Part shown: one piece after another, positions 3,356 to 21,723 of the stretch
Layout: each line of letters starts with the position of its first letter
Position numbering within the stretch: the first letter of the stretch is position 1
Assembly: GCA_958430865.1 (NCBI GenBank)
Contig: CAUDNR010001491.1
Span: 1 to 64,000, forward strand
Direction: 5' to 3'
Length of the DNA stretch: 64,000 nucleotides
Origin: Entrophospora sp. SA101
Lineage: Eukaryota; Glomeromycota; Glomeromycetes; Entrophosporales; Entrophosporaceae
Made by a program: the position numbers and the translations under genes
The notes under the pieces: generated by a model
Told to the model about the DNA's origin: nothing
Database searches by the model: none
What the model saw: the letters and a program-made list of their open reading frames with translations, nothing else

Positions 3356-6300
3356 ATGGTAAGCGTCCAGCAATACTTGAATAAAAATTATCCAAAAGAA
3401 AATAGAGAAGAAGTAACTAAACTTGATATTAGCAATAAAAACTTAGAAGGAGAACTAGACTTAACAGACTTTGTAATTTTAGAGGAATTAGATTGCTCTA
3501 ATAATCAATTGACTAGTCTAAATATTGACAGCTGTCCTGATTTGGAAATGATTGCTTGTCATGATAACTTTTTATCTGTTCTTAACCTGAGCAATAACTT
3601 GAAATTGGAGATGCTAAATATTGGCAATAATAATTTTTCGGAACAGGACTTGTCCTTTTTAAGTCATTTAGTAAATTTGGAAATTATTGTAGTAGGAAAT
3701 AAAGATGAAAAAAAAATCCAACAAGGTATTTATAATCGATTTTTAGGTTCTTTTGAACATTTGAAAAGTCTAACTAAACTAGAGTGCTTAGATATTAAAA
3801 ATACTGACATAGAAAGCGGAATAGAGTACCTGCCAGAAAGTTTGGAAGAATTTGTTTGTTCGTCTAGGGAAAGACCAAATTCAAGAGTCAAAAGTATTCA
3901 CAATCTCTTTACTAATGATGAAGGAATTGTGGAAGTTGATGATTATGGAACAATAAAGGACTTTAAAGAGAAAATTAGAAAGATTAAAAAAGAAAGCTCT
4001 AAACTAGCAAACAAAAGCATAGCAAGCTGGCAAGAATATGGAGTTCCATTCCTAGATTTCACAGAAGAGTTAACTCAGGAGTGGATAGATAAAGGCTTTA
4101 GCAAGGAAAGTTGTAAAGAATGGTTAAATATTGGTATACAATCTGGCGATAGTGATTTTTGTGATTGGTTAAGGAACATTAAAAAGGTTAATGTTGAATG
4201 AGTGTTAAATTATGGCGGCAGTGAAAAATTGAGAGAAAAATTTAAAGAATATTTAGAAAAGATAAAGAAAGCGAAAAATCGAACTCAAGATTGGTTGGAT
4301 CAAAATTATCCTAAAAAACAAAGGTGAAGTGTTGAAAAATTAGATCTCAGTAATAAAAATTTAGAAGGTGACTTGGATCTAGTTGACTTCCGTAGTTTGC
4401 AGGAAATAAATATTACTGGTAACCCTCAATTAGGTAAGATAATAAACAAGAAAACATATACTACCATCAAAATAAAAGCCCAGGAATGGCTAGAAAAAAA
4501 CTATCCGACTAAAGAAGAGAAAAAAATTAACTCAGAACATAAAATAACTACCTTTACTCCTCTTAATGTTGAGGGAGAGTTAATAATTAATAACTTTTCT
4601 CAATTAGAAGAAGTAATAATTTTCAATCAAAATAATTTAACCAAATTCCAAATAAATAATTGTCCTAATTTAACTAAACTGACTTGTAGAGATGGATATG
4701 CTCTGACTTACTTCGAGACAAGAGATTGTCCGAGTTTAGAGAATATTTCTTGTTTTTATAGCCAGTTGACAAAGTTAAATTTTGATCGATTAGAAAAGCT
4801 TACAGAGCTAAATTTTTATGCTAACCGACTTACGGATTTAAATCTTCATGGTTTTCCTAATTTAAAAGTGCTTAGTTGCTCCGGAAACCTTCTAACTAAA
4901 CTTGATTTAAGCCAAAATAGCAAATTAGAGAAACTAGATATTAGAGATAACAATTTTTCTGCTCAAGACTTATCTTTCTTAGTTCACTTAGTTAATTTAG
5001 AGGTTCTCGGATTAGGTAATGACGATGAAGAAAGAATGCAACAAGGTGTTTATAACCGTTTTTATAGTTCCTTAGAACCATTACGGGATTTGAATAAATT
5101 AGAACTTCTACATATAAATAACACTAACATTGATAGCGGATTAGAATATTTATCAGAGAGTGTTAAAAGTATCTATTGCGATGGGGCGGAAGAAAATGTT
5201 GGTTGTCTGAAAATCTATGAGCAACTAAAGCCTTATGGAGATAATTATTTAGCCTGAAAAAGGTCAAAGGTGCTTGTTGAACAATCTAAAAAGAAAATTG
5301 ATCTTCTTTGAGGCATAAAAATAAAGAATCAATTAAAGCAAGAACACTACGATGAAGAGGAGTATAGTTCTACAATGTCTATAACAACAGATCCGACTTC
5401 CATTTTTTCCGATGAGGAAGAATTTCAAAAACAAAGGGACGAATATATTAAAGAATTAGAAAGTGGTTTGCAAGAAAGAGAAAAAGAAATTAATCTTCTC
5501 AAAATCGAGATTCAAGGATTGAAAGAAAGAGTAGAGAAAATTAGTTACTTAGAAGAAAGAATCAAAGAGTTAACCAAATTAATCAAAAAGCAAAAAGAAA
5601 AAATAGTTGATGCTTATTTATATTTTGCCCCTGCTAAAGAGTTATTTAGAGAGTTAATCATTGCTCATTTAGAATTAACCAAGCTTTGAAGGAAAAAAGA
5701 ACCAATTGTTAAGTTCCGTAAACGATATGATAAAATCCATGAGGAGTTAGAAAGCAAAATAAGTGAAAAAGACATGGAAGAAGTAGAAATTGTTCTAACT
5801 GTCTGTGAAGAATTAATAGTTTGAGAAGCAGAACTAGAAGAAAAAATTAGTGAAAAACAACTATTGCTAGAAGGCGAACAAATACAAAAAATAATAACTA
5901 TTACTGGCAATATTAGTGTTAACCAGGGACATGCGGTTTTTGGTAGCATTTTCGGCGATAACGCTAATCTCAACTATAACACTAGCAAGAAGTTAATAGA
6001 ATTACCCATAATAACTAACACTAAAAGAGAAAAAAGAAACAGTTGAGAAGAACAAGAGTTGACTAAAAAACCTAAAGCATCAGATTGAACTTCTCTCCAT
6101 CCCTCTTTTGCCTCTCAACTAATCCACCAATGACAATCTTATAGCTTCACTCCTCAGCAAACTAAAGAATGACTGGATATTGGGATGAAAATTACTGATG
6201 CTGACTTTTGTGCTTGACTAAGAGATATTAAAAATTACACTCCAGAACAAGTCCTTAATCATGACAACCAAGAGCAATTAAATCAAGAATATTTTCAGTG

Positions 6301-6358
6301 ATGACAACATCAACAACAAGACTTGTTACAATCCCAAATCCAAATCCCACCCAAATAA
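3356..6358 (+). CDS. large LRR / coiled-coil protein with FCAWLRD C-terminus
   Basis: One continuous 1000-residue frame once UGA is read as Trp; standard-code reading would break it into five pieces. Residues 1-110: N-terminal cap (QQYLNKNYP...) plus LRRs of the 'LeeLDCSnNqLtsLnidsCpnL' type. Residues 230-285: WIDKGF...FCDWLRN motif. Residues 300-630: a second NYP cap and a longer LRR array. Residues 675-780 and 800-840: coiled coil. Residues 845-880: short beta-rich repeat (ITGNISVNQGHAVFGSIFGDNANLNYN). Residues 905-1000: the module WTSLHPSF...FCAWLRDIK...EQVLNHDN. No signal peptide. LRRs bind proteins, so a host-facing interaction protein is likely. Duplication of the cap+LRR block is visible. 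A strong hairpin terminator follows. Confidence 0.75.
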
Positions 6359-6422
6359 AAAGGGGAGTTAATTCTCCCCTTAACTAATAAGCATTTACTA
6401 CTGAATATTTATTAGATATCTT
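6359..6422 (+). terminator. hairpin terminator, repeated module
   Basis: Inverted repeat GGGGAG-ttaatt-CTCCCC immediately after the TAA at 6358. The 40 bases that follow (TAATAAGCATTTACTACTGA then ATATTTATTAG) recur with few changes after the GTPase gene at 11512-11580, so the terminator belongs to a repeated 3' module. Confidence 0.7.
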
Positions 6423-6480
6423 TTCCTTGTGTAAATGTGTAAAATTAAGATATAAGACTTACAATATTATAGTAAATATC

Positions 6481-6999
6481 ATGGGCGCAATCAAGAATAA
6501 GCAAGTTTCAGTATTAGAAATATCCGAATTTTTTCTTTCTTTAGACCCGAAGAGAGAATATTTTGTCAAAGATAAAATGATAAAAGTGGAGGGGAATTCG
6601 GTGCCAACTGTTGGCAACCTTCGTCTTAATAAATTATTACAAATTACTCAAATGCTTTATGCGGCCAAAGAAGGAAGATATTTATTTCCGGAAAAGTTTT
6701 TAGCTTTTGAACATGGCGGAATAATTTATGATATTTACCATCAGTTTCATTTTCTGGTTGTTCCTCACAGATCCACCTCAACTAAGAATTTAAATTCTAA
6801 CTTAAAAACCTTTCTAACTAAAATTTTTGGCTACTTCAAAACTTATACTAATCAGCAATTAGAGGATTTTGTTCACGAAGACCCGGCTTGATTTACAACT
6901 TGGGATGATAAAAAGAGTAAAGAAATGCCCCAAAGTCAGGAAATGATTAACTATTATCAAAATTTTGCTTTACATATAGTTGAAAGTATAGAAAGTTAA
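6481..6999 (+). CDS. Panacea-domain (SocA/DUF4065-like) antitoxin
   Basis: 172 residues using the ATG at 6481; an upstream in-frame TTG at 6427 is possible but would add a Cys-rich leader. Residues 35-75 carry the Panacea hallmark: LRLNKLLQITQMLYAAKEG then FLAFEHGGIIYDIY, matching the family's 'LQKLLYfaq...AW.yGPVv..vY'. The Trp of the motif is replaced. Known Panacea proteins neutralise very diverse toxins encoded next door; here a toxin candidate starts 9 bases downstream. Pair assignment is inference from motif and gene order. Confidence 0.65.
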
Positions 7000-7008
7000 T
7001 AAAAAACG

Positions 7009-7476
7009 ATGAACAAAGGTAAGGAGCGACCAAGGTTAAACCAAATTATCTTCATAGATCTTGATTACAAAGACCAATGAGACATAATAAGAAGAGGAAG
7101 ACCCTGTATAATAACCAAAATAAAGGAAGAAGATAATCTTTTTCTTTTTCGTCTGTTGACAATTACTTCCCAAAATGAAGAAGAAATTAAAGAGGAAGAA
7201 AAACAATTTATCTCTCAGTATGAAATTCGTAAATTACCTGATTGCTTAAAAATTGATCCTTCTTTTGTTAGAATACATCGCCATGTGAACTTGAAAATAG
7301 CAAAAAGCAAATTGCCTAAACTTCTCTGTAATAAGTGTCCACAAGGATGTTTTAAATGACTTAAAGAGAAAAATCAGAACGAGTATAATTTTATTGTGAA
7401 AAAGCACGAAGATTATCGTAATGATAAGTTGAATGCCTCAAAATTACGTGAACCTATTGAAGTCGAGATAGATTAA
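7009..7476 (+). CDS. putative toxin partner, PemK/MazF-like N-terminus
   Basis: 155 residues with UGA-Trp codons at 7078 and 7357. Residues 11-50 resemble the start of PemK/MazF-type endoribonucleases: IIFIDLDYK then RRGRPCIITKI and LTITS, the 'RGRPaIV...piTs' beta strands. The rest is basic and Cys/His-containing (CNKCPQGC), not typical of MazF. It directly follows the Panacea gene, as in Panacea toxin-antitoxin pairs. If active it would cleave RNA in the cell and be held off by the upstream protein. The assignment is moderate; a non-toxic SH3-like fold is the main alternative. Confidence 0.45.
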
Positions 7477-7726
7477 GAAAAAAACTCACTCGCTTGATTC
7501 TTTTTAAAAAATTAGTAATATAAGTAACTTATTTTCTTAATAATTCATATTTTGGTTTAGTGCTTGTTTATAATCACATTAAATTGCCTATGGTCAGAAC
7601 GAGAGAAATAGCAAATTGGAATAATTATAAAAATCATTCACTGACTAATTTGTTATAATTGCTTAAAAGCGGAAGTGGTGATTGTAAACAGAATTTAAAC
7701 AATAATAACACAAATTTAATAAAAAT

Positions 7727-9160
7727 ATGGTAAACAATGTAAATGCACAAAACTATATAAACGAAAAATATCCAACAAGTGGCACATGCCAAAGAGATAA
7801 TGATCCAGAAAATAAAGGTAAAACCAGAAAAGGAATAACTCTGTTAGATATTAGAAAAGGCAAGGTTGGTAATGGAATTTTTAGTAAAAATAAAAATTTA
7901 ATAGAAGATTTAAAATTGGAAGGGTTTACTAACCTACGAAAGTTAATAATTTCTTCTCACCAAATAACTAGTTTGGATATTAGTGATTGTCCAAATTTAG
8001 AAGAATTAGATTGCCGTGGTAATGAACTTACTTATTTGAAAGTTGATGGCTGTTCTAATCTTAGAAAAATTGATTGCTCTAATAATCCTCTTCGAGAATT
8101 AGATTTAAGTACTTGTTCTAAATTAGAGGAAGCAAACATAAATGGATGTCCATCAAAACTCACTGAAGAAGGAGCAACAAAGTCTAATCTTACTTATGAT
8201 GCTGAGAAAGGAAAATTAGCCAAAGGTTCAGCCAAAAATAGTCCGCAAATAACTAAAGCCAAAGAAGATGACATTAGAAACATCCTAATAGTTGGCATGA
8301 CAGGTGGTGGCAAATCTACTTTAGCTAATGTCTTGTCTAATACTAATACTTTTGTAGAAAATAGTTCTAGCACTAGTGTCACGAAAAACTTCCAGACTAG
8401 TGATATTTTTGAGTGGCAAGGTAAAAAATATCGCATAATAGATAACATTGGTTTTGGAGATACTGCTAACATTTCTAATGAAGATATCTTATTTAAAATA
8501 GGAGAAGGAATTCATGCAACTAAAGAAGGAATAAACCAAATACTTTTTGTATTTAAAGGGAGGTTTTCGGAAGAACAAATAACAGCCTTTAATATGTTTA
8601 AAAATTTTATTGCCGATACTGGTATTACTAAGTTTACTACTTTGGTTAGAACTAATTTTGAAAATTTTGAAGATTCACAAAAATGCCAAGAGGATCGACA
8701 ATCTCTTCTTACCCAGACTTCGCAAACTGTTAGAGAAATTATTAGTTCTTGTAACAATGTCATATATGTAGACAATCCGCCAATACCAGTAATAAAAGAA
8801 AAGGACAATGAAAGAATAAGAGCAAAAAAGGAAGATAAGATAAAAGAAAGTAAGCAAAAGAGGGAACAATCAATAAAAGTAGTGCTAAACCACGTGGCTG
8901 AAAATTGTCCAGAAATCTACAAATTAAAAGAATGAAATAGTATAGTCTCTAAGGTAAATGAATACAATAAAAAGAAAGAAGAAATAGAAAAAAGTAATAT
9001 TTCAGTTTCGGAAAAAGAAAAAGAGATAAAGAAAATAGAAAGTGAAACTGCTAAAGAAATAAACGAAGGAATAAAAGTTAGTGTAGGAGTAGAAGTTCCT
9101 GGACTGCCAGTTGGATTGAATGCAGTAGTAGAATATACTAAGCAAACAATAAACTGATAA
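7727..9160 (+). CDS. LRR-AIG1/GIMAP-like GTPase fusion
   Basis: 477 residues. 1-60: NAQNYINEKYP cap. 60-145: LRRs (FTNLRKLIISSHQITSLDI and following). 183-330: GTPase with Walker A GMTGGGKSTLAN, switch/G3 DNIGFGDT, AIG1-type segment 'EGINQILFVFKGRFSEEQ' and G4-like TTLVRTNFENF. 330-420: basic helical stretch; 400-477 coiled coil ending in a hydrophobic beta-like patch. AIG1 GTPases are septin/TOC-related membrane-surface GTPases, mostly eukaryotic. A UGA-Trp at 8933 lengthens the protein by 74 residues over a standard-code reading. The neighbour 9253-11505 carries two more such domains. Confidence 0.75.
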
Positions 9161-9252
9161 GTTTTTACTAAACTGGAAAACATAATATTTTTGCCGTAGG
9201 GGAATTTTTAATTTCCTCACAGCCATCTTTAAAAGAAAATAACAATAAAACT

Positions 9253-11505
9253 ATGACTAAAATAATAATACTAATAGGAAAAACTGGCAGCGGAAAGTCT
9301 ACGCTTGCCAACGTAATAAGCGGAACTAATAAGTTTTGAGAAAGTGAGGCAAGCGTTAGCGGAACTAAGGAAATTCAAAAAGAGGAATTTATTGAGAATG
9401 ATATTAATTATGCAGTAATTGATACCGTAGGGATAGGTGATACCAAGTTAAAAAAAGAGGAGGTGCTAGACAAAATAGCAGAAGCGGTTTATTTAGCCCG
9501 GGAAGGAGTTAGCCAAATCCTTTTCGTTACTGATGGTCGATTCGACCAATACGAAATGGTTACTTTTAATTTACTAAGGACAATTATTTTTGATGAACAT
9601 GTTACTAAGCACACTACTATAGTAAGAACTAGATTCGAGGATTTTGAAGATGAAGAAGAATGTCAAGCGGATATTGAAAAAATGTTGACTGAAAAAGAAC
9701 TTTCTGAAATAGTCAATTCCTGTCAAGGAAGAATTGTTCATGTGAATAACTCTTCGCTAAGCAGTAAATATGGCAGAGAAGAAAGAGAAGAGTCCAGAAA
9801 GAGGATATTAGACAATTTGAGGAATAGTTGTCAAAAAAATCCTTATAAACCTTCAAAGTTACAAGAGTTGAGCAATGAAATTGCTACTGATTATTTCGAT
9901 TATCTTAAAAAAAAGCAGGAATTAAAAGAAGAATTGGAAAAGTTGAAGTTGAAAGAAGAAACTAATAAGGAATCAGTTACTAAAGAAGAAGAAAGTAAAG
10001 ATTGTGTAAATGTAGTAATTGGAATCGGAGAAAGAATAACACAATTAGAAGAGAAAAAAGAAAAATTAAAAAAAGAAATTCAAGAAAAAGAGAAAATTAT
10101 TCGACAAAAAGTATTAAAACATATCTTTAATAACTATTACGAGATTAATAACATTTTAGGAGGTGATTTTTTTATTAGTAGTATCATTGGAGATGATAAT
10201 GATTGGCGGGATATTAATGAGGAATTTGTTGACAAGGCAGTGATTTTGAAATGGCTAAGTCGAGGTTTTGATTATCAACAGGTGAAGAAATGATCCGATG
10301 CTTTGGGAAATAGTTTTAACCCAAAGGTCGATGCTGGTTTCTGTGCTTGACTACGAGATGACAAAAAATTAACTGTGGAAAAAATACAAGAGTTGAGCCA
10401 TGATGTTAAACAATTAAAAGGTAAATATGTAAATTGATTAGAAGAAGAAGTAGACATATTTGACAAGCACGGCCAACAACTAAGTCGGTGAAAAGAAACA
10501 CATAAGAAATCAATCCATAATCTTCTTTTAATCGGCTGAACAGGAAATGGTAAATCTACTCTAGCTAATGTCCTAACTAACAGGGGGGAACTTAAAAGAA
10601 AAAAAGTAACCAAAGAGTTTGAAGAAAAAAATAATAAATGTCACAAATGTAAGCGAAAATTTGTAGAGGGGAAAGATAAAGAAGGAAAACGCAATAAATG
10701 AATAGAAGCACTTGTGGATGATCAAGGGCCTTATTTTTTTCATGAAAAGTGTTTTAATTTTAAAGAAAGTTGTGGAACTACTAGCGAAACAAGAAGTTTT
10801 CAAGCAGAAGAGTTTACTTATGAAGGGGAAAACTATCGAATTGTTGACACAGTAGGAATCGGTGATACTAAATTATCTGAAAGGGAAGTTTTATTCAAAA
10901 TGGCTGAGGGAATTTATTTAGTGAAAGAAGGTATTAAGCAAGTTCTTTTTGTCGTAGGAAATAAGTTCACAAGTCAAGAAATAGAAATATTCAGGTTATT
11001 AAAAGATGTCATTCTAGAAAGTGGCATTACTGAATACACCACTATTGTGAAAACGAAATTTCCTAACTTTGAGGATCACGAGGATTGCGAAGAAGACCGA
11101 CAAACATTGCAAGAAGAAAACCAAGCAATATCCAAAATTTTGGAAAAAAGTGAGATAATTTATGTGGACAATCCGCCTTTGAAAGGAAATTCAGAGACAA
11201 TAGAGGCAAACAAAAAAACAAGAAAATCATCCCAAGGTGTATTGTTCAAACATTTAAAAAATAATTGTCAAGGTGTCTATAAGGGCAATTGGGATAAAAT
11301 ACAATTGAAGATTACCGATTACATCAAAGGGAAGAAACAATTAGGACATCAACTAGAAGTTAATAATATTAATAATAATGATGAACTAATTACTCGCTTA
11401 GAAGAAGTAAAAGATGCTAAAGATGGAGTTATCCAAAAAGTGGGAACAGAGTTAGAACATGCCATAGAAGTTTCCGAGGTGTTCAGTAAAGTATCTAAGA
11501 AATAA
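9253..11505 (+). CDS. tandem AIG1-like GTPase with zinc-ribbon insertion
   Basis: 750 residues, one frame with UGA-Trp. First G domain: residues 1-170, Walker A GKTGSGKSTLANVISG, G3 DTVGIGDT, G4-like TTIVRTRFEDF. Residues 200-300 are coiled coil. Residues about 345-400 carry the shared module GFCAWLRDDKKLTVE...WLEEEVD. Second G domain: residues 425-640, Walker A GWTGNGKSTLAN, then an insertion with CHKCKRKF...HEKC (zinc ribbon, residues 460-500), G3 DTVGIGDTKL, G4-like TTIVKTKFPNF. The C-terminus is helical. Two intact G domains in one chain suggest an intramolecular dimer, the activating arrangement known for AIG1 and septin GTPases. Terminator at 11512. Confidence 0.75.
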
Positions 11506-11511
11506 CTAAAA

Positions 11512-11580
11512 ATCAAGGGGAGTTTTTTGGACTCCCCTTATCTAACAAGCGTTTAGTGTTGAATATTTATCAGTTAAAAA
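11512..11580 (+). terminator. hairpin terminator, second copy of repeated 3' module
   Basis: AGGGGAGT-ttttttgg-ACTCCCCTT hairpin just after the TAA of the tandem GTPase. The bases that follow (CTAACAAGCGTTTAGTGTTG, then AATATTTATCAG) match the module after the LRR gene at 6359-6422, showing a shared or duplicated 3' end. Confidence 0.7.
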
Positions 11581-11679
11581 GTTCCTCTAATCCACCTCCG
11601 CAATAGTTGGACCAGTAGCACCTGAATTAGAGTGTGGGTTCATTCTCTGAATTAAAAAATAAATCTTATCTAACAGTAG

Positions 11680-11916
11680 GAGAGTATTTTTGCAGTAATC
11701 GCTCAATCTTCTTTAGTTAGCAGACAATTCATTCTTAATTGACCTAAGTAAAGAATGGCTTGTTCCACACTATTAATGGGAATTTCAACTATTTTTTCCA
11801 CTTCTTGGCTAAGGCTGGCTTGGTCTTTTTCTAATTCATAATTAGTTTTTTCTAAATAGTGAATTTTGCTGTTTATTTGCTTTTTTAATTCGGTTCAGGT
11901 TGTTAATATTTCTTGT
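11680..11916 (-). pseudogene. gene fragment, coiled-coil remnant
   Basis: An open minus-strand stretch of about 78 codons (…ELKKQINSKIHYLEKTNYEL…) ending TAG at 11680 with a UGA-Trp (TKEDWAIT). It has no ATG and is preceded in frame by TAA, so it looks like the 3' remnant of a larger coiled-coil gene. Sequence style matches the coiled-coil proteins nearby. It ends tail-to-tail with the GTPase terminator. Confidence 0.4.
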
Positions 11917-12099
11917 TATTAGAGAAAAATATACCAATCTTTAAAAACCTCTCTAAAACTAAGCATTTTTACTAATAAAACTTACTCTTCCAATAATTCT
12001 ATATTTTTTTAAAATTAACCAGCACTGCCACAATTCTTTTTTAAAAATTAATAACTTAACATTTTTGCTAAAATATAGTATATAGGTTTGGGTTTAGTT

Positions 12100-12460
12100 G
12101 GTATAAAAAAAATATAAGGAGAAGTTTAAAGTGCGTAATATTGGATTAACTCTTGAGTGAGGGTAATGAAGAGGGCAAAGAAACTTAATTTATAATTCAA
12201 CAATAGATTTTTATTCGCTCCATAAGTTCATTGCCCTCACTGAAAAATTAAATCTCCGGTTTACTTTTCTTAAAAATTAATCTTTAAAGGACAATAATTT
12301 AAAAAATAAGCCAAAATAATCCCCCCTTCTTAAAAATTAGAAAAAAAGATTTGTTATTAAATTTTTATCTTTCGACATCAAATTAAATTGTATTATAAAA
12401 AAGTCGAAAGAGACTAAAAAGTACGACCAACTCTTTTTATTATCTCTTTCAGTGAATGAT
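12100..12460 (+). other. gene-free structured region with possible leader peptide
   Basis: No gene over about 690 bases (11917-12603). It contains a long-range inverted repeat AGTGAGGGTAATGAA (near 12158) / TTCATTGCCCTCACT (near 12229), then TCTTTCGAC (12368) / GTCGAAAGA (12403), then GAAAGAGA / TCTCTTTC around 12407-12450. Just before the first arm, AAGGAG precedes a GTG-initiated 11-codon frame closed by TAA. RNA, replication or recombination roles are all possible. Confidence 0.4.
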
Positions 12461-12520
12461 AGAAACTGGCAAGAGTTGGCTATTTGAGATAACCAGTTTC
12501 TTACCACTCGCTCAAAGAAG
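12461..12520 (+). repeat. 60-bp palindromic element, copy 1
   Basis: Centre TGGCTATTTGAGATAACCA (7-bp arms, 5-bp core) within longer arms ACTGGCAAGAG / CTTACCACT. A related element lies in opposite orientation at 44588-44665 (centre TGGTTATTCGAAATAGCCA). Conservation of arms and core in two gene-free stretches suggests a recombination site, replication origin or structured RNA. Confidence 0.55.
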
Positions 12521-12603
12521 TAATATATTATTTATTTTAATGTTTTAGAAAGCACTTGCGAACTTTAACGGATTACTTAAAATACTAAATTAAAATAAAT
12601 AAT

Positions 12604-13317
12604 ATGGCTAGTCACATTCTACTTAAAGACACTATATATCGAATTGAAAAAAAACAGGTTCAAAAAGATATTAATTGATGCGAAAAGGAAAAATCAGACT
12701 TAGAAGAATTGCAGAAAGAGTGGGAAGAATTAGAGGTTTTAAGAAAAAAATATTTAGAGGGCAACACCTACTTAGGATGTGGTTCTTGTCATTCTAGACT
12801 TCATTTTAATGCTAAAAATAGTAATAATTGCTGGGATTGTTATTTGGAAATTATTAATAGGATAAGAATCAGAGAAAGAAATATTGGCAACATGAGTTTT
12901 GTTGAAAGAATGAATTTCAACGAAGCAAAAAGAGGATATTCCGAACCAAACGAAGAGGAAAAAAAGCAAATAGAGTTAAATAACCGCCTAAAAATTCTTC
13001 CACAAGAAATTGAAGAAAAGGAAACTAAAATTGAAGAATTAAAGAAAAAAATAGAAGAAAAAACTATCTGACAAAAGCAAATAAGTGAAGAAAAAGATTT
13101 TACTTGTATCAAATTTGTTGACACTAACATAAAGTTCATTCAGCATTCCAATGTTGAACCTAGATTTTTCAAATATAATAAAGCAGATGCATGAGAAAAA
13201 ATTTTAGATGAACTAAATGGCGATATTCAAGCCAAGTACCCACGAGCAATCTTCTTGGGTAAAAATCCGGAAGAAGGAAAGCAAAATTTTATTTATGAAT
13301 TAGAAAAAACCAGTTAA
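12604..13317 (+). CDS. zinc-ribbon coiled-coil protein
   Basis: 237 residues with UGA-Trp codons. Residues 1-55 and 115-160 are coiled coil; residues 58-80 hold CGSC...CWDC (one zinc ribbon, two CxxC knuckles). The C-terminal 70 residues form a compact domain (FTCIKFVDTNIKFIQHSN, FFKYNKADAWEKILDEL). No membrane helix. Function unknown; it is one of many CxxC-bearing small proteins in this window. Confidence 0.65.
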
Positions 13318-13355
13318 ATCATAAATGATAAATATCGATTAAAACTTTATAAGTA

Positions 13356-14105
13356 TTAAACGCTATCTTTATGCTGGTCTTTTCACTTTTTAAGGTCAAA
13401 ATCATATTCTCTAAGTTTATTTTCTATTTTTTTATTGCCTTCAAAATGGAAGCGAGTTATTGAAGCAGGAAGATATTCTAAGTCATCGTCGACGTTAGTA
13501 TTTCTTATGTTAAGAAGTACTAACTTTTTCAGTTTTTGTAAGGGTTTTAGAGACCCATAAAAAAGGTTGTATTGATAATTATCGAGTTGGATAATTTCTT
13601 GCCCACTTTTATTTTTGGTTAATCCGTGATTACCTATTAACAGTAATTCTAAATTGACAAAGCGAGAAACCCAATTTAAATCAGTAGGAGGAAGTCTATT
13701 ATCACATATTACTAAGGCTTGCAGCTTTTCGGGATTAGGAATAGTGTTTAGGAAATTTAAATCAGTGAACCGATTATCACAAACATCTAATCATTCTAAC
13801 TTTTTTAAATTAGATAAGTCCAATTTCTTTATTCTCTGATTATCATCACAATAAAGTTTACGAAGATTTTGACAATCGGATAAACCAAGGCTAGTTATTC
13901 GATTATGCCGACAATTGATAACTTCTAAATCTACAAATCCTTTTAGAGAAAGCGGTCCTTTTAGTCTGAGATTTTGCAGAAGTAATTCTGTTATTCCTTT
14001 TCTTTTTTGTAAAGGATATTTTTTGTCTAATCATTTTTGGGCATTACCTCATGATTTTTCCTTTTTTGAGAATATTTTTTTAAAAAAATTAGTAAATCAA
14101 TTCAT
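13356..14105 (-). CDS. LRR protein
   Basis: 249 residues. Residues 20-40 carry the cap (GNAQKWLDKKYPLQKRKGITEL) common to LRR proteins here, followed by about 7 LRRs of the 'LdlSnLkkLewLDVcdNrfT' type to residue 215 (YGSLKPLQKLKKLVLLNIRN, YLPAS). It ends in a charged tail without the FCAWLRD module, so simpler than its relatives. UGA-Trp codons at the cap and repeat 4. Likely a protein-binding scaffold. Confidence 0.7.
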
Positions 14106-14132
14106 ATTCTGTTTAATAATATAGGTTTTTGG

Positions 14133-14414
14133 TTAGAGCGATGGTCAATTTTTGTAGCATTGAAAGCATTTAGTGGTGCTGGTGGATATATTAACTTTAA
14201 AATCTGCAAAGACAAGTTTAACTCCCGCGTCAAGAGATTTTTTATAAATACAAACTGCATCTCCTTCATAAATTGGTTCGAGACAATCGATACAACTAGC
14301 AACAATCTTTCTTGTTTTTCTTTCAATCAAAACACATTCCTTACAAATTATTGAGCAATTAAGTCGAATTTCTTTTCCTTGTGGAATGTTTTCAAAGCAT
14401 TTGCTACACAGCAT
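14133..14414 (-). CDS. double zinc-ribbon protein
   Basis: 93 residues with four Cys pairs: CSKC, CKEC, CIDC and CFQC, spaced like two treble-clef or rubredoxin-like ribbons. The ATG at 14414 is preceded by AAGGAATTT. It lies upstream of the LRR gene 13356-14105 in the same direction with a 28-base gap. Function unknown; nucleic-acid or protein binding is plausible. Confidence 0.6.
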
Positions 14415-14573
14415 TTTAGTTTTTTGGGTTTTTATAAAGGAATTTTAATGAATTAAGGATATCATAATTAAATGCCCCCTACATTGAGATACTCTTTATC
14501 TCGACCATTATCATAAATTAGATTAAAATGGGTAGTAGTCGTTATGAATTTTAAAATCTAACTTACTAATTTT

Positions 14574-15074
14574 TTATTTTTTAAAGAATTGGAAAGAACA
14601 AGGAGAGGAAAAGTGGGGGGGTGTTGAATTCCATAATTTACTATAATCTTGATATAACTCTTCTGAACTGTTGTGAATATAAGAAGCGGTAGTGGTAATA
14701 TGACTATGACCTAATAATTTCTGAATAGTGGTCAATTGAGCTCCTTTATTATTTAAGAGAGTAGCGAAAGTTCTCCGAAAGGTATGAGGACTAACTACTT
14801 TTTTAATGCCTGATAAACGAGCTCTTTGCTGGATAAGTTGATTAATCAATATCCTTGATAATGGTTTGCCTCGAATAGTGGTAAAAAGATATTCAAAAGA
14901 AGAAAGGTTAGTTATTTTGCTTACTAAAAAAGGAGGTAAAAAAACATATCTAACCTTATTGCCTTTGCCTAATATTTTTAGTAGACCATTGGCATAATCA
15001 CTATGTCGAATATTAACTAATTCACTTACTCTTATTCCGGTGTAAAAAAAGAAGTCAATTATTAAATTACTCAA
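14574..15074 (-). pseudogene. tyrosine recombinase, catalytic (C-terminal) half
   Basis: 166 codons encoding a complete XerC/D-type catalytic domain: TGIRVSELVNIR (first Arg), GKGNKVRYVFL (Lys), SPHTFRRTFAT (HxxR), LGHSHITTTASYIH (His and nucleophilic Tyr). It has no core-binding domain: the frame opens inside an IS630-type end at 15062-15086. The missing N-terminal half is 8.3 kb away at 23316-23723 on the same strand. Removal of the intervening DNA with one TA would leave a one-base frame offset, so the gene was already broken or decayed afterwards. Not expected to work as a recombinase alone. Confidence 0.75.
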
Positions 15075-15086
15075 ATTAAATGTTAA
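15062..15086. repeat. IS630-type terminal inverted repeat (left end) with TA flank
   Basis: Starts TTAAATTACTCAAATTAAAT next to TA at 15060-15061. The inner 16 bases (CTCAAATTAAATGTTA) match the inverted copy at 23326-23350. The transposase stop codon TAA lies inside this repeat. Confidence 0.7.
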
Positions 15087-16107
15087 CTTTCTTTAATCCA
15101 TTTTTAACTACTTTTTTCTTTGACCTGTCTTTCTTGTCAAAATAATTTGAGCAGTGTCGAAAGTTTTCTGATAAATCTTGCTTATTCAACTCTTCAACAG
15201 CTTTCTCAATCGACAACTTCATCCCTTCATAATTTCTGGATCTTTGCCTTTCAGTATTTTTTCTAAGTGTATTAAAACATAATTCGGTAGGATTAAGCAT
15301 TGGAGCATAAGGAACAATATAACGAACCTCAATATTTTTCTTTGCCATTTGTTCTTTAACACTTGGCAACTTTGCTTCTTTTCTCTTTTTCGAAGCATGG
15401 TGAATTCTAGCATTATCCATTAAAAGAATATTCTTTTTATTTCCAATAGGATTAATCCCTTCCAAAAAATAATAAAATACTTTTCAATCAACACTTCCCC
15501 TAACTAGTTTTCAATAAACCACACCATTTTTCTTTAAATTGCTAACAGCAAATAAAAGTGTATAATGTTCTCCTTGATTACTGGGTTTTTTATTGATTGC
15601 TCTTAAACCCTTAAAAGCATAACCAAAGCGAGGGTCAAGATTAGGATAAAAAGAACACTCATCTAGGGCAATAAAGGGAGTTTCTAACAACAGAGGCTTA
15701 ATTTCTTCGTTAAATGCCTTGGCTTTCTCCTCATCTAACTGAGTATAATGAAAAGTAAGTTTTTTGTAGGTATAATTAAGTCTCTTTCTTAAAATATAAG
15801 AAATTTTTTTCTGTGTTATTTGCTGACCTATTTCCTTAGAAACTAAATCAGCTAATTCATTCTGAGTAATTGTGTTGTTCTTGGTAATACAAGATCTTAG
15901 AAGTTCAGGAATAATTCCATAATCTTTGGGTTTTCTTTTTCTTTTACGAAAGGGATCTTTTTCTTTCTTCCATCTGATTATAGTCTGCTGGCTTACTTTA
16001 AGAGCCTCAGCTAACTTTTTTTGGCTCGTGCCTCCTTTTTTAAATCTCATTATCTGCTCAGCAGAAAGTTTCGTCTTTTTTGTCATATTATATATTTTAG
16101 TATTCAT
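15076..16107 (-). CDS. IS630-family transposase
   Basis: 343 residues, intact if UGA at 15508 is Trp. N-terminal helix-turn-helix (TSQKKLAEALKVSQQTIIRW), linker, then the DDE catalytic core: first Asp in FIALDECSFYPN, second Asp in ILLMDNARIHHA, Glu in APMLNPTELCFNTL. This is the IS630/Tc1-mariner layout; such enzymes cut and paste at TA. An ATG at 16086 (MTKKTKL) is an alternative start. The stop codon sits within the terminal repeat, a feature shared with the copy beside the N gap. Confidence 0.85.
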
Positions 16108-16262
16108 TTGGTATACATTCTAATTATTAGTAAAAAATAAAGGTGGATAAGGTTCCTACTAAAAACTTATTTATATCTATGAACAAGGAAATAGTTGGCA
16201 AGGGCAAAGAAACTCGTAAAATAGGAGGTGTAGGATGAAAAATGAAAAGATACTGAATACAT

Positions 16263-16559
16263 ATGGAAAATAAAAACAAGCCTAAACCAGATTGAGTTCC
16301 CAAGCCCTTAAAGAAAAAATGTTTTCAGTGTAAGAGCAATATTCTTATTAGTTTTGTCATTCCTAAGAAAGATTATAGTTGAAAAAATAGTCTAGAATAC
16401 TGAACTGAGAATAAGGACAATAAGGATAAATACATTTGTAATAAATGCTTAATTGAGCTTTATAATGATAAACCCCGCTATTGAAGCACGATTACTAGTT
16501 TAAAGAAAAAACAAAGAATGAAAACCTATATTTACACGGGAGCAATCTTTTTGGAATAA
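16263..16559 (+). CDS. zinc-ribbon protein, paralogue of 23940-24278
   Basis: 98 residues with CFQC and CNKC pairs and the block 'SLEYWTENKDNKDKYICNKC'. The minus-strand gene at 23940-24278 has the same order (CFRC ... NWEYWTEKETNKKICDNC), so the two are paralogues. Several Trp are UGA codons. Function unknown. Confidence 0.6.
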
Positions 16560-16630
16560 TCAAATTGTAATCATACTCACCTTGCCCCCTTTATGTCGGA
16601 TTAAATTAAAATTATAAAAAATATGAATAT

Positions 16631-17630
16631 ATGGCACAAGTAAAAATCCTAGCAAAATTTGAAGGAAGACAAACAGAATATTTTGGAATGGCATTTGAAG
16701 CGACCTTTTTTAAGTTCGTTTCCCAAGAAAAAGATAATGGGGTTCCTAAGTATGAGATATTTATTATGGCTTCGGATCCGGCTCATCCAATAATAGAAGA
16801 AATCAACAAAAGCAGTGTAATCAGTCTTTACAATGAAGAATATTATAGAGAGAATTATTGTTGAGAAATATCCTTTGTAGATGATAATGGTTTGTTAAAA
16901 GATAAGGAAGCTAGAGAAAATATAAACAGTAAAAATAAGGCAAAAAGGTATTTTATGTCTGGTCAGGCTCCTCAGTCTCCTGGTAGCATTAAAATAGTCA
17001 ATAAGCTTTATGAGAGTAAATTAGAGGAATTAAAAAAACTAAATAACTTAATTCCAGGAGAGGAAAGTAAGTGAAGGAGTTTTATTCTTGAATTTCGCGG
17101 AAAACTAAGTCAATTAACTAATGAGGATGCTTCCAAATATCAGAAGGGTAAAGAGTTTATTGAGGAATTAGAAGCCGAATTAAACAAGAAAACTGGTAAA
17201 GGAAATGATGACAGCAGAGAGAGAGAGAGAGAGAGAGAGCAATTTACCTGACCTAAAACAGATCCAACAGTATTTTACTGCTAATAACATTTACCAAATA
17301 ACTCAGCAAGAAAACGGAAGTTTATTAATTACTTTTGATGCTGGTTCGGATGATAATTCTTCCCAAACTATTACTAATGAGGAGCAAGCAAACGAAACTG
17401 ATAATCAGAAAAAAAGTGCTTGACAGAAACTAAAACAATATCTAACTAAAAAAGGCAAAAGTTCTCTTAATAAGCAAGAGTTAGAGGCCTTGGTTAGTGG
17501 TTCACCAAGCCAAGAGAACAACAAACCTTTTAATTGAACTCCTTGGTTAATTGGCGGAGGAATTATTTTAGTCTTGGTAATAGGGATAATTGTTTACCTG
17601 CTAATGAGAAACAAAGAAAAAGAAGCCTAA
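16631..17630 (+). CDS. tail-anchored protein interrupted by an AG-repeat tract (out of frame)
   Basis: Two frames joined by an (AG)12 tract at 17216-17239. Upstream: ATG at 16631, about 195 codons of a soluble domain plus helix (MAQVKILAKFEGRQTEYFGM). Downstream: about 125 codons leading to a membrane helix (TPWLIGGGIILVLVIGIIVY) and basic tail. In this sequence the upstream frame runs through the tract and stops within 15 codons, so the membrane anchor is not made. One added AG unit, or two fewer, would join the frames. Layout otherwise matches the tail-anchored family. Annotated as one phase-variable gene by inference. Confidence 0.6.
17216..17239. repeat. (AG)12 tract inside coding sequence
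   Basis: Twenty-four bases of uninterrupted AG within the gene 16631-17630. The reading frames on its two sides differ, as expected for a slipped-strand phase-variation switch in the OFF state. Confidence 0.8.
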
Positions 17631-17663
17631 AAGCCTAATAAACTCCTTAAAATAAGGGGTATT

Positions 17664-19562
17664 ATGGCTACTCTTCAAGAAGCAATACAAAGGTTAGAAC
17701 ATGTGGAAAGATTATTAAAGGATCCTAGTTCTTTTTCCCAAGAGGAAATCAAGGAACAACCAAGCGATACATCTCTTATTAAGACCTTAAAAAAGAAAAT
17801 CCAAGGAGAAAAAGATATTAAATCGGTTGAAGCAGAAAGGGATAGTCGACCAAATATAACCTTAACTCAATGAAATGATTATAAGGACCGACCAACCCAA
17901 GCACAATTTAACAAAGAAGTTCAAGCGAAAATTAAAGTAGAAAGTGATTTAGTCCAAGAACAAAATAAAGTCAAACAGTTAGAAAAAGACAAAACCCAAC
18001 TAACTACTGGTCTAACTAATAAAAATAAAGAAATCAACACCATTCTTACCAAATGAAAAGCCAAGGATTTAACCGAATTAAGCACTAATATTCAAGCCCT
18101 CAAAAATGCCAGTGAAAATACTACCCTACAAGAAACAATCAAAAACCTAGAAACTGAAAGAGAGCAAAATCGAGCCGAGATAACTAAAAAAAATGACCGA
18201 ATTGCCCAATTAGGCAAATTATTAAAAGGAACAGCCACTATCTTTTCTAAACAACACAACTATATCGACCAATTAAAGACCCAATTAGAGCAAGAAGGTA
18301 AAACCCAAGTAACTAGTCAAGAAACAGTTAACCATTTACAAACTGATATCCAAAGATTAGATAATGAGAAAAAAGAACTAGATAACCGAGTTAAGGAATT
18401 AGAACAAGAAAGAGTTAAAGCCGAAAAAGAACGAGAAACTGAATTAACTAACTTAAAAGTTCAGTATGATAAATCTAAAGAGTTCATTGGTAGAACTTTA
18501 AGAAATAAAATTGAAAAGTTAAAGCAAGAATTACAAATTACTACGGAAGTATTAAATGAAAAAGCAAAAGGAGAAGAGGAATTAAAAGGAGTTGTTGGTA
18601 AATTATCAAACGAGAATGAAAAAATGAAAACAATTCTAGAAGAATTGGCTAAGGATACCAAAGAGATAGGAACCCAAACTGATTTAACAGCCGAACAAAT
18701 TACCCAAATGGAAAAAGATATTACTAAATACCAGACTGATATTCAGCAAGAACAGCAAAAAGTAAACTCTCTTACTAATCAAATAAACACTTTACAGGAA
18801 GAAATAAAGGGTTTACAAGGGCAAGTAAAGGATAAAGAAATGAATGAGTTAGAAAAGGAGTTAATGAACTATTGTAAAAAAACTGTCGAGTTGTTTGATT
18901 TTCAACTTGAAGAAGTCGATTACGATTGAATATACTATGAAGATTTATCAAAAATACTTCTAGATGATAAATGAAACCAACTAGGAGGAGAATACAAGGA
19001 TGTTTGGGCAAGACTAAAAGAATTAACCAGCGCTAAATGAACTATTAGACATCACATGAAGTTAGTTAACGAAGCACAACAAAGAACAAAAGATTTACAA
19101 ACTAAATACGACCTAGAAACTAAAACCAAGGCAGAATTATTGGAATATTTGAACTATTACAGAGGAATGATGGTTATTGATGTTAGGAAAGGAGAGGGTA
19201 TACTTAATTTTTTCTCTAAAATTAATGACCCACACGAAAAAATAGTCGAGGCACAAACTAATCTTGATAACTTTATGAAGCAACATACAAGACCAAATCC
19301 AATATTGTATATATACCTAGAAAATGATGACATCATTGATTTAGGTAATTGTAATTATCCAACACTTCGTGTATGAACTAATAATGCAGGGTCTAAATAC
19401 ACCAAAAGAGGACATAAAGCGGAGTTATGGATGAAGAGTGGAAATAAAGTATGAAAAGAAAATGTTGAATGCATTGTGGGAAACAATATCGAAACTAATA
19501 TGGTTGGAGTAAAACGAATTCTAGGAAGTTTTAGTCAATTAGGATTTAGGTTTGAATTTTAG
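17664..19562 (+). CDS. long coiled-coil protein with C-terminal globular domain
   Basis: 632 residues in one frame with UGA-Trp. Residues 60-420 are almost continuous heptad coiled coil (VNHLQTDIQRLDNEKKELD and similar); 'EIGTQTDLTAEQITQMEKDI' marks a mid-coil segment. Residues 430-500 (ELFDFQLEEVDYDWIYYEDL) and the last 130 residues, including PILYIYLENDDIIDLGNCNY, look globular. No membrane helix or signal peptide. It starts 33 bases after the previous gene. A structural or scaffold role is plausible; no family recognised. Confidence 0.65.
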
Positions 19563-19584
19563 TGCTTGTAAAATATTAAGTGAT

Positions 19585-21723
19585 TTATTTAGGAGGCTGT
19601 TCTATTTGGATTTGAAGTTGCTGATAATTTTGAAATTCTTGTCTTAATTCTGTTTCATTGCCTTGATTTAGAACTTGTTCAGCAGTTAGTTGTTTGGTAT
19701 CTCTTAGTCAAGCACAGAAGTTATAATCAGTAGGTTGTAAGCCAATATTAATTCATTCTTGGGTTTGGGAGCAGGTGAAGTTTAAGTTAGTTCAGGATTG
19801 GGTTAGTTTTGGGGTAAAGTTGGGGCGAATGTTGGTTCATTCTCTACTTTGATTATTATCTGCTACCGAAGTATTAGCAAATTTATCTAATAAATCAGCC
19901 ATATTAGGGATTTCTGAGGAACCAATTACTTCCTTGGATAATAATTTAGTAATCTGTTTGGTATCTATCATTTTGCTAGTTAGAGTAGCAGTAGGATGGA
20001 TTTGGTAAGGAGTGTTTTGGGAAAAAGTGTTGTATTCTTGTTCTATTTCTTGGTATCGAAGATAGAATTGAGTATCTTCTTTAACACATCCATTATCATA
20101 ATCAATCCAACCATCAATAATTCCCTCCACTTCCCCAGCAGTTGGTCTCTTTTCAGGCTCGGCATCCCAGCATTTTTTAATTAAATCTTTTAATAATTGA
20201 GGGATTTTTAATTCATTTATATTAGGCCGATAGCCTTGACAAATTTTTAAGGTTAATTCCATTTCATCCATTTTAGAATAAGGATAAGCATTAGTTAGTA
20301 ATTCATAAGCCACAATTCCAAAAGAATAAACATCACTTGCTTGGGTATAAGGTTTGCCCAATAAGACTTCTGGTGCTACATAAGGAAGAACCCCATAAAT
20401 TTTACCCTCTTGTTTTTGGTAATTAACTGGTTGACTGAGACCAAAGTCGGTAATATAACTATAAAAATCATTCAATATATTCCCACTATGGAAATCTCGA
20501 TGGATTAGGTTTTGTTCGTGAATATTATTTAATCCATTAACAATACCTCTTAACTTTCTAAGTTTGTCTCCTAAACTTAATTTAGGCTCATTTTCATAAT
20601 CTAATTTATCATAACTACTTTGTAAATATTGTCTTAAATTTCCTTCTTTCTTATATTCCATTACCATCATATAGTTTTTGGTTGTGGGGTTTTGAGAAAT
20701 GCCATAACATCAGATAATGTTATAACTAGTAAGCAAACTAGTATTAGTAATCTCACTCAAAAATTCCCAAGTAATATTTTGAGAATTAGTAAAGGTTTTG
20801 AGAACAATTGCCTTTCTCTTTCACTTAGCCTTATAAACCTTACTAAATCCCCCATCAGTAAGATGTTCTATATTAGTAAACTCTTCGTAAGGAATTCATT
20901 GTAATTTATCTTCATATTTTCTTGTTGGTTGCTTTTCAATAAACTTTTCAATTAATTCTTGCCCCTCTAACTTTTCTAAATCTTTTTTTCATTCTTTTTC
21001 AGCACAAGGTCGACATCATCTTTTGCTAGTATTAGGCTGAAAGCATTTAAGACAAGAACCGTGTTTATCATTTCTCAATCAAAGCTTTTTTAGATTAGGA
21101 TAAGAGATTAAAAAAGAAAAGTCATATTCAGGAGGGAAATTATTATATCTTAAATATAATTCTTCTAAATTAATAGAATTAATAGGAAGAGTAATGTCAG
21201 TTAGTAAATTACGAGAACAACTAATTACTTCTAACTTCTCACAATTAGTTAAATCAAGACTGGTTAATTTATTTCTTCAACATTTAAGTTCTTTAAGATT
21301 AGAAAAATCATTGAGGTTGAGTTTGCCTTCTAGGTATTGTTCACTAATATCTAACTCAGTTATTTCACTTCGGATTTTACTAAGGTTATTTATTCCTTTC
21401 TGATAACTTTCCTCTTTTTTCTCATTTCCTCTTATACAAGTTCCTTCCCTAGGATAATTTTGGTCTAGTCAAGTTTGAGCTAGAGAACAAGGGATTATTT
21501 GGGTTTCTCGTGTTTCGTATTCTTGCTTCTTTCCATTTCATTCCTTATAAGAACCTCCTTTTATCTCTAATTTACTCCTATCTACGGAAGTAGAAATATA
21601 TATTTTTTCTAATTCTTCATACTCACTACAATCTAACACTCCTTCTAATGGTTGGTTTAGGTATATTCTTTCTGTTTTCTTATCGGGATAATTCTTATCC
21701 AATCATTCTTGAGCGTTTACCAT
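19585..21723 (-). CDS. LRR protein fused to a eukaryote-type protein kinase
   Basis: 712 residues. 1-30 and 85-105: cap motifs (NAQEWLDKNYPDKK; TWLDQNYP). 110-220: LRRs. 225-245: CLKC...CRPC zinc ribbon. 290-560: kinase with Gly-loop GGFSKVYKAKW, VLK Lys, HRDFHSGNIL catalytic loop, DFG (ITDFGLS), APE (VAPEVLLGKPYTQASDVYSFG) and CWDAEPEKRPTAGE, all catalytic residues present. The wording of the catalytic core is typical of Glomeromycotina kinases as I recall them. 630-712: shared C-terminal module (QEWINIGLQPTDYNFCAWLR). Transfer from a fungal host is the likely origin of the kinase part. It would phosphorylate host or self proteins. Confidence 0.85.

What the first reader, a model, noticed from the sequence alone, without database searches (positions are those of the whole stretch)
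3356..21723. Shared 'FCAWLRD' C-terminal module across otherwise unrelated proteins
The same pattern (W-x-dIG...D-x-x-FCaWLRDxK-x-T-x-E-x-VLN) ends the 1000-residue LRR protein (6190 region), appears inside it (4110-4200), sits mid-chain in the tandem GTPase (10310-10440) and ends the kinase (19690-19760). Most of these proteins and other LRR proteins also start with a NAQ-x-WL-x-x-NYP cap. A fixed N-cap and C-module around swapped centres looks like a modular effector system with a common sorting or binding tag. I do not recognise the module.
Basis: partly seen in the sequence, partly recalled or inferred. Interest (0 to 1): 0.85.

Follow-up and report, generated by a model that had tools for sequence, protein, structure and literature searches.

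The report
Shared adaptor module of fungal endobacteria
Bacteria that live inside mycorrhizal fungi carry a small, undescribed helical protein module that they attach to many different signalling proteins, including a kinase of the type their fungal host makes, which suggests a common wiring kit for acting on, or within, the host cell.

Summary
The contig belongs to a mollicute (TGA=W, bacterial ribosomal genes) inside the assembly of the mycorrhizal fungus Entrophospora sp. SA101. An ~75-residue module occurs four times in the window (leave-one-out E 6e-28 to 1e-14). Fetched loci of the same assembly hold 73 domains in 51 ORFs; the assembly holds at least four mollicute lineages. It also occurs in three named endobacterial records and in metagenomes. 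I found no recurrent Pfam, NCBIfam or PHROG match and no PDB relative. AlphaFold gives a six-helix domain without a significant fold match. It is fused N-terminally, C-terminally or internally to LRR, kinase, AIG1 GTPase, HET, LRAT and DnaJ domains. Module lineages follow position (N or C), not the fused centre, so centres have been swapped. Host-type relatives of the kinase and AIG1 centres are in the assembly; no module match on a recognisably fungal contig was seen. The 'NAQxWLxxNYP' cap is predicted to be an ordinary LRR capping helix. A separate C-terminal tail (QIEIPPK-like) also sits on proteins without module and is the better candidate sorting tag. Best reading: an endobacterium-specific adaptor module; partner and site of action are inferred.

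The parts
3356..6358 (+). P0001, 1000 aa: LRR (cap variant VQQYLNKNYP), module, LRR, coiled coil, GHA motif, module, tail
4025..4252 (+). module copy 1 (internal, P0001 aa 224-299)
5888..5980 (+). 'GHA' motif, related stretches at 11 places of the assembly at E <= 1 (query included)
6083..6301 (+). module copy 2 (C-terminal, P0001 aa 910-982)
6329..6355 (+). C-terminal tail QSQIQIPPK
9253..11505 (+). P0002, 750 aa: two AIG1-type GTPase domains with a module between them
10201..10437 (+). module copy 3 (internal, P0002 aa 317-395)
19585..21723 (-). P0003, 712 aa: LRR cap and LRR, cysteine ribbon C-x2-C...C-x2-C, kinase, module, tail
20119..21054 (-). host-type unit: cysteine ribbon plus kinase (aa 224-535), aligned to three host kinase genes in two pieces each
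19624..19842 (-). module copy 4 (C-terminal, P0003 aa 628-700); structure model m6f0c66f76466
19588..19617 (-). C-terminal tail LQIQIEQPPK
21685..21717 (-). LRR capping helix NAQEWLDKNYP (not part of the module; helix modelled on P0001)
2378..3313 (+). LRAT-domain protein without module, upstream neighbour; ends ...IAQTQIETNN
7727..9160 (+). LRR plus AIG1 protein without module (N-cap present)
40807..42495 (+). LRR plus LRAT protein without module; tail-like end LQAQIEVNSNQNN
59471..60295 (-). LRR protein without module; tail-like end EAQVEVLSSKHSS

Best explanation
The module is an undescribed, endobacterium-specific all-helical protein-protein interaction domain (adaptor) of about 75 residues. 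Mollicutes-related endobacteria (MRE) of mycorrhizal fungi have multiplied it and fused it to many signalling 'centres', two of which (a cysteine-ribbon kinase and AIG1 GTPases) have host-type relatives in the same assembly. Shown here: the module family, its predicted fold, its occurrence on bacterial (TGA=W) contigs of this assembly, its presence in other MRE records, and the swapping of centres relative to module lineages. Inferred: it works as a like-with-like or N-type-with-C-type adaptor that brings kinase, GTPase, HET, LRAT and LRR proteins of one endobacterium into shared complexes, and these proteins act in the fungal cytoplasm in which the bacteria live. The separate C-terminal tail is the likelier export or localisation signal.
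For: 73 domains in 51 ORFs of fetched loci of the same assembly. Of 43 of these 51 ORFs scanned with Pfam: 12 LRR only (3 of them, L008, L017 and L077, below Pfam's cut-off), 4 kinase, 2 AIG1, 3 HET (one with ankyrin), 3 LRAT, 1 DnaJ, 18 without an informative domain. No family for the module: each of 41 copies scanned, no Pfam family matches more than 2, no NCBIfam family more than 2, no PHROG more than 4 of 41; single best hits E 2.9e-4, 0.005, 0.0018; PDB sequence profile search best E 0.07. Six-helix model, mean pLDDT 83.7, pTM 0.67. The module tree follows position, N versus C: 6 changes for 57 rows, shuffled mean 17.4, 0 of 1000 as low; it does not follow centre: 20 changes for 36 rows, the maximum possible, shuffled mean 18.4. 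Sister pairs join kinase with LRAT, LRR with kinase, and LRR with HET (supports 85, 91 and 86, none starred). Host-type centres: after 10 kinase matches on module-bearing contigs, 138 more at 42-51% identity, 2 of them with an in-frame TGA (148 of 2079 candidates scored). AIG1: the first 13 non-self matches (46-50%) have no in-frame TGA and lie on contigs without module match. The module shows no such set: 65 of 68 and 67 of 68 matches contain in-frame TGA, including all 52 with E <= 0.0054; the others lie on C1735, C923 and C893, which also carry TGA-bearing module or rpl2 matches. Three of three host kinase loci fetched (about 1.3 kb each) share the cysteine-ribbon plus kinase unit and show no module in that stretch. 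Other genomes: MRERC_7c006, MRECE_32c015, a Candidatus Moeniiplasma glomeromycotorum kinase.
Against: No binding, export or expression data exist in my calls for any of these proteins; adaptor function rests on architecture alone. The fold search did not link the module to a known adaptor fold. Some copies look like fragments or frameshifted pieces (C624, C792:57481-58897). 'Captured from the host' is supported for the kinase and, more weakly, for AIG1. For HET, 4 of 6 matches lie on module-bearing contigs and 2 (C864, C231; 44% over 67 residues, 2 TGA each) on others, C864 being a contig with a host-type kinase, so the origin of HET stays open. LRAT: 8 of 8 matches carry TGA. The module tree is weakly resolved (5 of 75 inner branches starred); 28 of 106 domains (27 short, 1 duplicate) were left out of it; several rows come from the same protein, two kinase labels (C458:11114, C1609) were given by eye from the linker, and metagenome fragments may inflate the N class (with own-assembly rows only the result holds: 4 changes for 35 rows, shuffled mean 11.8, 0 of 1000).
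Confidence: 0.5

Rival explanations
1. The module is an export or sorting tag that sends all carriers to one place.
For: One domain on otherwise unrelated proteins; often at the very N-terminus or just before the C-terminus.
Against: Positions are spread evenly (N 16, C 15, internal 14 of 45 domains in complete ORFs) and arrays exist. A different, end-fixed element (the PPK tail) occurs both with and without the module.
Confidence: 0.15
2. The module recognises one fungal host molecule (target-binding domain), so each centre acts on the same host structure.
For: Conserved W, F, GF and D positions; arrays of helical units like solenoid ligand binders; some carriers bear host-type catalytic centres.
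Against: No host ligand known; N-type and C-type lineages have diverged, which fits two roles or partners rather than one common ligand.
Confidence: 0.2
3. The proteins act inside the bacterium as conflict or anti-phage defence (LRR sensor, kinase, HET and GTPase effectors).
For: The P0003 kinase domain matches the PADLOC model mad6 at E 2.7e-58 and PD-T4-6 kinases at up to 1.1e-36; L041 likewise; LRR, HET and AIG1 are immune-type domains.
Against: Those models match through the kinase domain. Of the ten proteins scanned the other eight gave none, one weak hit (P0002, E 3.6e-4) or a hit in the ankyrin part (L006). The kinase unit's closest non-MRE relatives found here are host-type kinases.
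Confidence: 0.12
4. The module is a recombination-spread, weakly constrained repeat without a common function.
For: High copy number, broken copies, plastic genomes of MRE (PMC10507103 and PMC11423566, passages).
Against: The tryptophans and GF/WL positions stay conserved at a median identity of 36%, in an assembly with at least four lineages and in named MRE.
Confidence: 0.1

Closest known systems
Effector-associated domains (EADs) of bacterial conflict systems (PMC7159879, passages read)
   Same: Small, non-enzymatic, mostly all-helical domains found in many proteins of one genome, fused to different effector and signalling domains; proposed there to bridge them by homotypic interaction
   Different: No recurrent Pfam match of the module; a link to MoxR-vWA or GAP1 core systems was not sought; found in intracellular mollicutes
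Host-acquired kinase and LRR genes of Mollicutes-related endobacteria (PMC10507103, section 10 read and passages; HET genes mentioned in PMC10197012, passages)
   Same: Kinase, LRR and HET genes in MRE with fungal relatives are already in print
   Different: In the parts I read the module, the tail and the fusion architecture are not mentioned. Torres-Cortes 2015 and Naito 2015 could not be read
Death-fold adaptors (recalled)
   Same: About 90 residues, six helices, at chain ends of immune-type proteins
   Different: Foldseek against PDB gave no match with E below 4
Legionella-type eukaryotic-like effectors (recalled)
   Same: Intracellular bacteria carrying host-type domains
   Different: I recall no injection machinery in mollicutes; secretion genes were not searched for here

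Membership tests
Effector-associated domains (EAD) | small, non-enzymatic, mainly all-helical | tested here: met
   73-80 position profile, six-helix AlphaFold model; lack of enzymatic features judged by eye
Effector-associated domains (EAD) | several paralogues per genome fused to different effector or signalling domains | tested here: met
   51 ORFs in an assembly with at least four lineages; contig C1178 alone carries it on P0001, P0002, P0003 and two more proteins (L005, L006) with LRR, GTPase, kinase and HET-ankyrin centres
Effector-associated domains (EAD) | sequence match to a described EAD family | tested here: inconclusive
   no recurrent Pfam or NCBIfam match for 41 copies; whether all EADs are in these libraries was not checked
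Effector-associated domains (EAD) | a second copy fused to a MoxR-vWA or GAP1 core component | not tested
   the endobacterial genomes were not scanned for these cores
Death-fold superfamily | six-helix Greek-key bundle | tested here: inconclusive
   no such match listed by Foldseek or VIA-align; absence is no proof
mTERF-like alpha solenoid | mTERF repeat fold | tested here: inconclusive
Host-type cysteine-ribbon kinase (centre of P0003) | C-x2-C ... C-x2-C ribbon followed by LQWIPY and kinase domain | tested here: met
   aa 221-535 aligns with three of three fetched host-type loci, 34-47% identity, in two separate frames each
Leucine-rich repeat proteins | LRR_4 profile above cut-off and LRR solenoid with N-cap | tested here: met
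   P0001 76.4 bits, P0003 33.5 bits, cut-off 27; model of P0001 aa 1-195 pLDDT 86.2, listed PDB hits mostly LRR proteins, best E 1.6e-5
Amyloid signalling motif (GHA motif) | cross-beta aggregation and receptor-effector pairing | not testable with these tools
   resemblance recalled only; not compared with BASS profiles

The most novel reading that the evidence does not exclude
MRE run a plug-in signalling network inside the fungal cytoplasm: a bacterial invention (N-type and C-type adaptor modules, a beta 'GHA' motif and a C-terminal QIEIPPK tag) is bolted onto signalling enzymes captured from the host, so that captured kinases and GTPases are rewired to bacterial LRR, HET and LRAT proteins. 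This would be the first recognised common tag set for effectors of a mollicute.
Probability: 0.3. Interest if true: 0.85.

Novelty: new variant of a known kind. Interest (0 to 1): 0.62.

Why it matters
How wall-less bacteria in mycorrhizal fungi act on their host is not known; [quoted passage not shown] A profile for this module and for the tail would list candidate host-acting proteins in any MRE genome, and it would help to separate endobacterial from fungal genes in mycorrhizal assemblies, where at least two module genes are deposited as fungal proteins that skip parts of the bacterial frame (P0026, P0027).
Full report
WHAT THE WINDOW IS. The window is bases 1-64000 of a 99,236-base contig (C1178) in an assembly of 101 Mb and 2123 contigs. 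It reads with TGA=W: under table 4 it holds long ORFs that table 11 breaks. It carries bacterial ribosomal protein genes (L2, L14 and L5 above NCBIfam cut-offs; L23, L24 and L22 below them), and its GC is 32%. Two database proteins that overlap genes of this assembly but skip parts of the bacterial frame are named Entrophospora sp. SA101 (P0026, P0027; for P0027 the longest contig is 226,320 bases, the length of contig C792 here). That is a mycorrhizal fungus of Glomeromycotina (lineage; 'mycorrhizal' recalled). So this is a contig of a mollicute endobacterium (MRE) inside a fungal assembly. The L2 protein has four copies with in-frame TGA (99, 82, 66 and 64% identity), so at least four MRE lineages are in the assembly. 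Such contamination is known for Glomeromycotina assemblies (PMC10507103, section 10; PMC11423566, passages).

THE OBSERVATION. The four copies are real: 15 invariant columns in the alignment, leave-one-out E values from 6.4e-28 to 1.1e-14 with the best background at 0.009, and no fifth copy in six frames of the window. P0001 is LRR, module, LRR, coiled coil, GHA motif, module, tail. P0002 has two AIG1-type GTPase domains around a module. P0003 is LRR, cysteine ribbon, kinase, module, tail.

HOW WIDE IT IS. Two searches of the whole assembly with one module each gave 68 matches at E <= 1; 65 of 68 and 67 of 68 contain in-frame TGA, among them all 52 with E <= 0.0054. An iterated profile on the loci I could fetch finds 73 domains in 51 ORFs (72 in 50 after trimming to start codons). 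Outside this assembly the module occurs in MRERC_7c006 of Mycoplasmataceae bacterium RC_NB112A, in MRECE_32c015 of CE_OT135 (seven domains), in a protein kinase of Candidatus Moeniiplasma glomeromycotorum, and in metagenome proteins: 23 outside proteins with 34 domains in all, after leaving out the two SA101 records. No relative was found in the GTDB, plasmid or phage scans; those scans are weak tests where TGA is read as stop, and asked for one exact pattern.

WHAT IT IS FUSED TO. Of the 51 ORFs I scanned 43 with Pfam at E <= 0.01 (at E <= 1): LRR only 12 (3 of them below Pfam's cut-off), kinase 4, HET 3, LRAT 3, AIG1 2, DnaJ 1, nothing informative 18. Several ORFs are cut by the ends of the fetched stretch, so centres may have been missed. 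In 31 complete ORFs the 45 domains lie N-terminal (16), C-terminal (15) or internal (14).

CENTRES ARE SWAPPED. On a tree of 78 modules (28 of 106 left out as short or duplicate; 73 columns, quick search, 5 of 75 inner branches starred) the N and C labels are strongly clustered: 6 changes for 57 rows, shuffled mean 17.4, 0 of 1000 as low; own-assembly rows only: 4 changes for 35 rows, shuffled mean 11.8, 0 of 1000. The centre labels are not clustered: 20 changes for 36 rows, which is the maximum. Sister pairs join a kinase with an LRAT protein, an LRR protein with a kinase, and an LRR protein with a HET protein, with supports of 85, 91 and 86. Position-specific module types have thus been kept while the catalytic centre changed.

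HOST-TYPE CENTRES, BACTERIAL MODULE. The P0003 kinase domain has 148 scored matches in the assembly (of 2079 candidates). The first ten lie on contigs that also carry the module; of the other 138, at 42-51% identity, two contain an in-frame TGA. Three of these loci that I fetched, about 1.3 kb each, have the same cysteine ribbon, linker and kinase, split between two open frames as by an intron, and align with P0003 from aa 221 to 535; none shows the module in that stretch. For AIG1 the first 13 non-self matches (46-50%) have no in-frame TGA and lie on contigs without module match; that these are fungal is inferred. For HET, 4 of 6 matches lie on module-bearing contigs; 2 of 6 (C864, C231; 44% over 67 residues, two TGA each) do not, and C864 also holds one of the host-type kinases, so a host relic or an insert is possible. 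LRAT has 8 of 8 matches with TGA, and 91 of 103 LRR matches lie on module-bearing contigs. That kinase and LRR genes of MRE have fungal relatives is in print (PMC10507103, section 10), and HET genes in endobacteria are mentioned in PMC10197012 (passages). For the module itself these searches showed no copy on a recognisably fungal contig.

STRUCTURE. With 21 sequences AlphaFold gives six helices (4-15, 21-29, 34-42, 47-58, 64-70, 73-91), mean pLDDT 83.7, pTM 0.67. Neither PDB nor BFVD holds a significant match. The conserved letters are W, F, W, GF, W-I, G-L, D, F/Y and W-L-R/K. The N-cap was modelled as part of P0001 aa 1-195: helix 4-11 at pLDDT about 95 followed by LRR strands, and the best PDB matches are LRR proteins (internalin A, E 1.6e-5). 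So the cap is predicted to be an ordinary LRR cap.

TAIL AND GHA MOTIF. Ten of 35 module ORFs have PPK or PSK within the last 12 residues, against 0 of 4 cap/LRR ORFs without module, 3 of 136 other ORFs and 3 of 2462 internal windows; the Q-x-Q-I-E core is in 9 of 35, 2 of 4, 5 of 136 and 40 of 2462 (patterns chosen after looking). DNA patterns for the tail give 8 and 12 matches with 0 in the reversed control; 4 of each set belong to one repeat on C2 and C785, and one of the 12 (C1724) is not at the end of an open frame. Among the rest are proteins without a module in the stretch read: a GHA-motif protein (L083), a coiled-coil protein (L084) and an LRAT protein (L086). Six of 23 outside proteins, including the Moeniiplasma kinase and MRERC_7c006, end in PPK or PPKS. 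The GHA motif (N-V-x-x-G-H-A-x-x-G...G-D-x-A-N) has 11 places in the assembly at E <= 1, the query included, and stands before the C-terminal module in a kinase (C1459) and in LRR proteins (P0001, C1773, C458, P0030). It looks like the short motifs of amyloid signalling, but that resemblance is recalled, not tested.

MECHANISM. The pattern (many copies of a small helical domain, fused to different effectors of one genome) is that of coupling adaptors such as the EADs (PMC7159879, passages). I therefore think the module couples MRE proteins to each other, with N-type and C-type forms as the two partners or two layers; probability about one half. The PPK tail is the better candidate for a localisation or export signal. 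Action in the fungal cytoplasm is inferred from the host-type centres and the bacteria's intracellular life. No call tests binding, export or effect.

LIMITS. Copy counts are lower bounds for the assembly as a whole and not counts per genome. Papers that first described MRE genomes (Torres-Cortes 2015, Naito 2015) were not held, so a mention of this module there cannot be excluded; the literature searches behind 'not seen in print' were made, of which I opened PMC10507103, PMC10197012, PMC11423566 and PMC12306442 in passages or single sections only.

Noticed in passing
window 5888-5980; also C1459, C1773, C458, C743, L083, P0013, P0030: Recurrent 'GHA' motif (N-V-x-x-G-H-A-x-x-G...G-D-x-A-N), often before a C-terminal module; may be a beta or amyloid-type signalling motif.
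   Followed up: partly
G000 assembly, L2 places C1178, C1669, C390, C893: At least four mollicute lineages co-reside in one fungal assembly (L2 64-99% identity).
   Followed up: yes
P0026, P0027 (nr, Entrophospora sp. SA101): Endobacterial module genes are deposited as fungal proteins that skip parts of the bacterial frame.
   Followed up: partly
L006:2440-6900 -, C1178 82439-86899: 1487-aa protein with four modules, a HET domain and ankyrin repeats, ending QIQIPSK.
   Followed up: partly
C295:12518-15760 of G000: HET domain and module on a contig where the search reported an open frame of 3643 aa; not read to its end.
   Followed up: no
contigs C864 and C231 of G000 (20292-20492 and 21122-21322): HET-like matches with two TGA each on contigs without module match, one of them with a host-type kinase; host relic or endobacterial insert.
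   Followed up: no
contigs C2 (3 places) and C785 of G000: A repeat family in which a short frame ends QIQIPPK-stop; probably chance, but the same letters as the endobacterial tail.
   Followed up: partly
L045, L054 (C37, C539 of G000): Small proteins that begin MRIYTKCPCCG and end with the module, no Pfam match.
   Followed up: no
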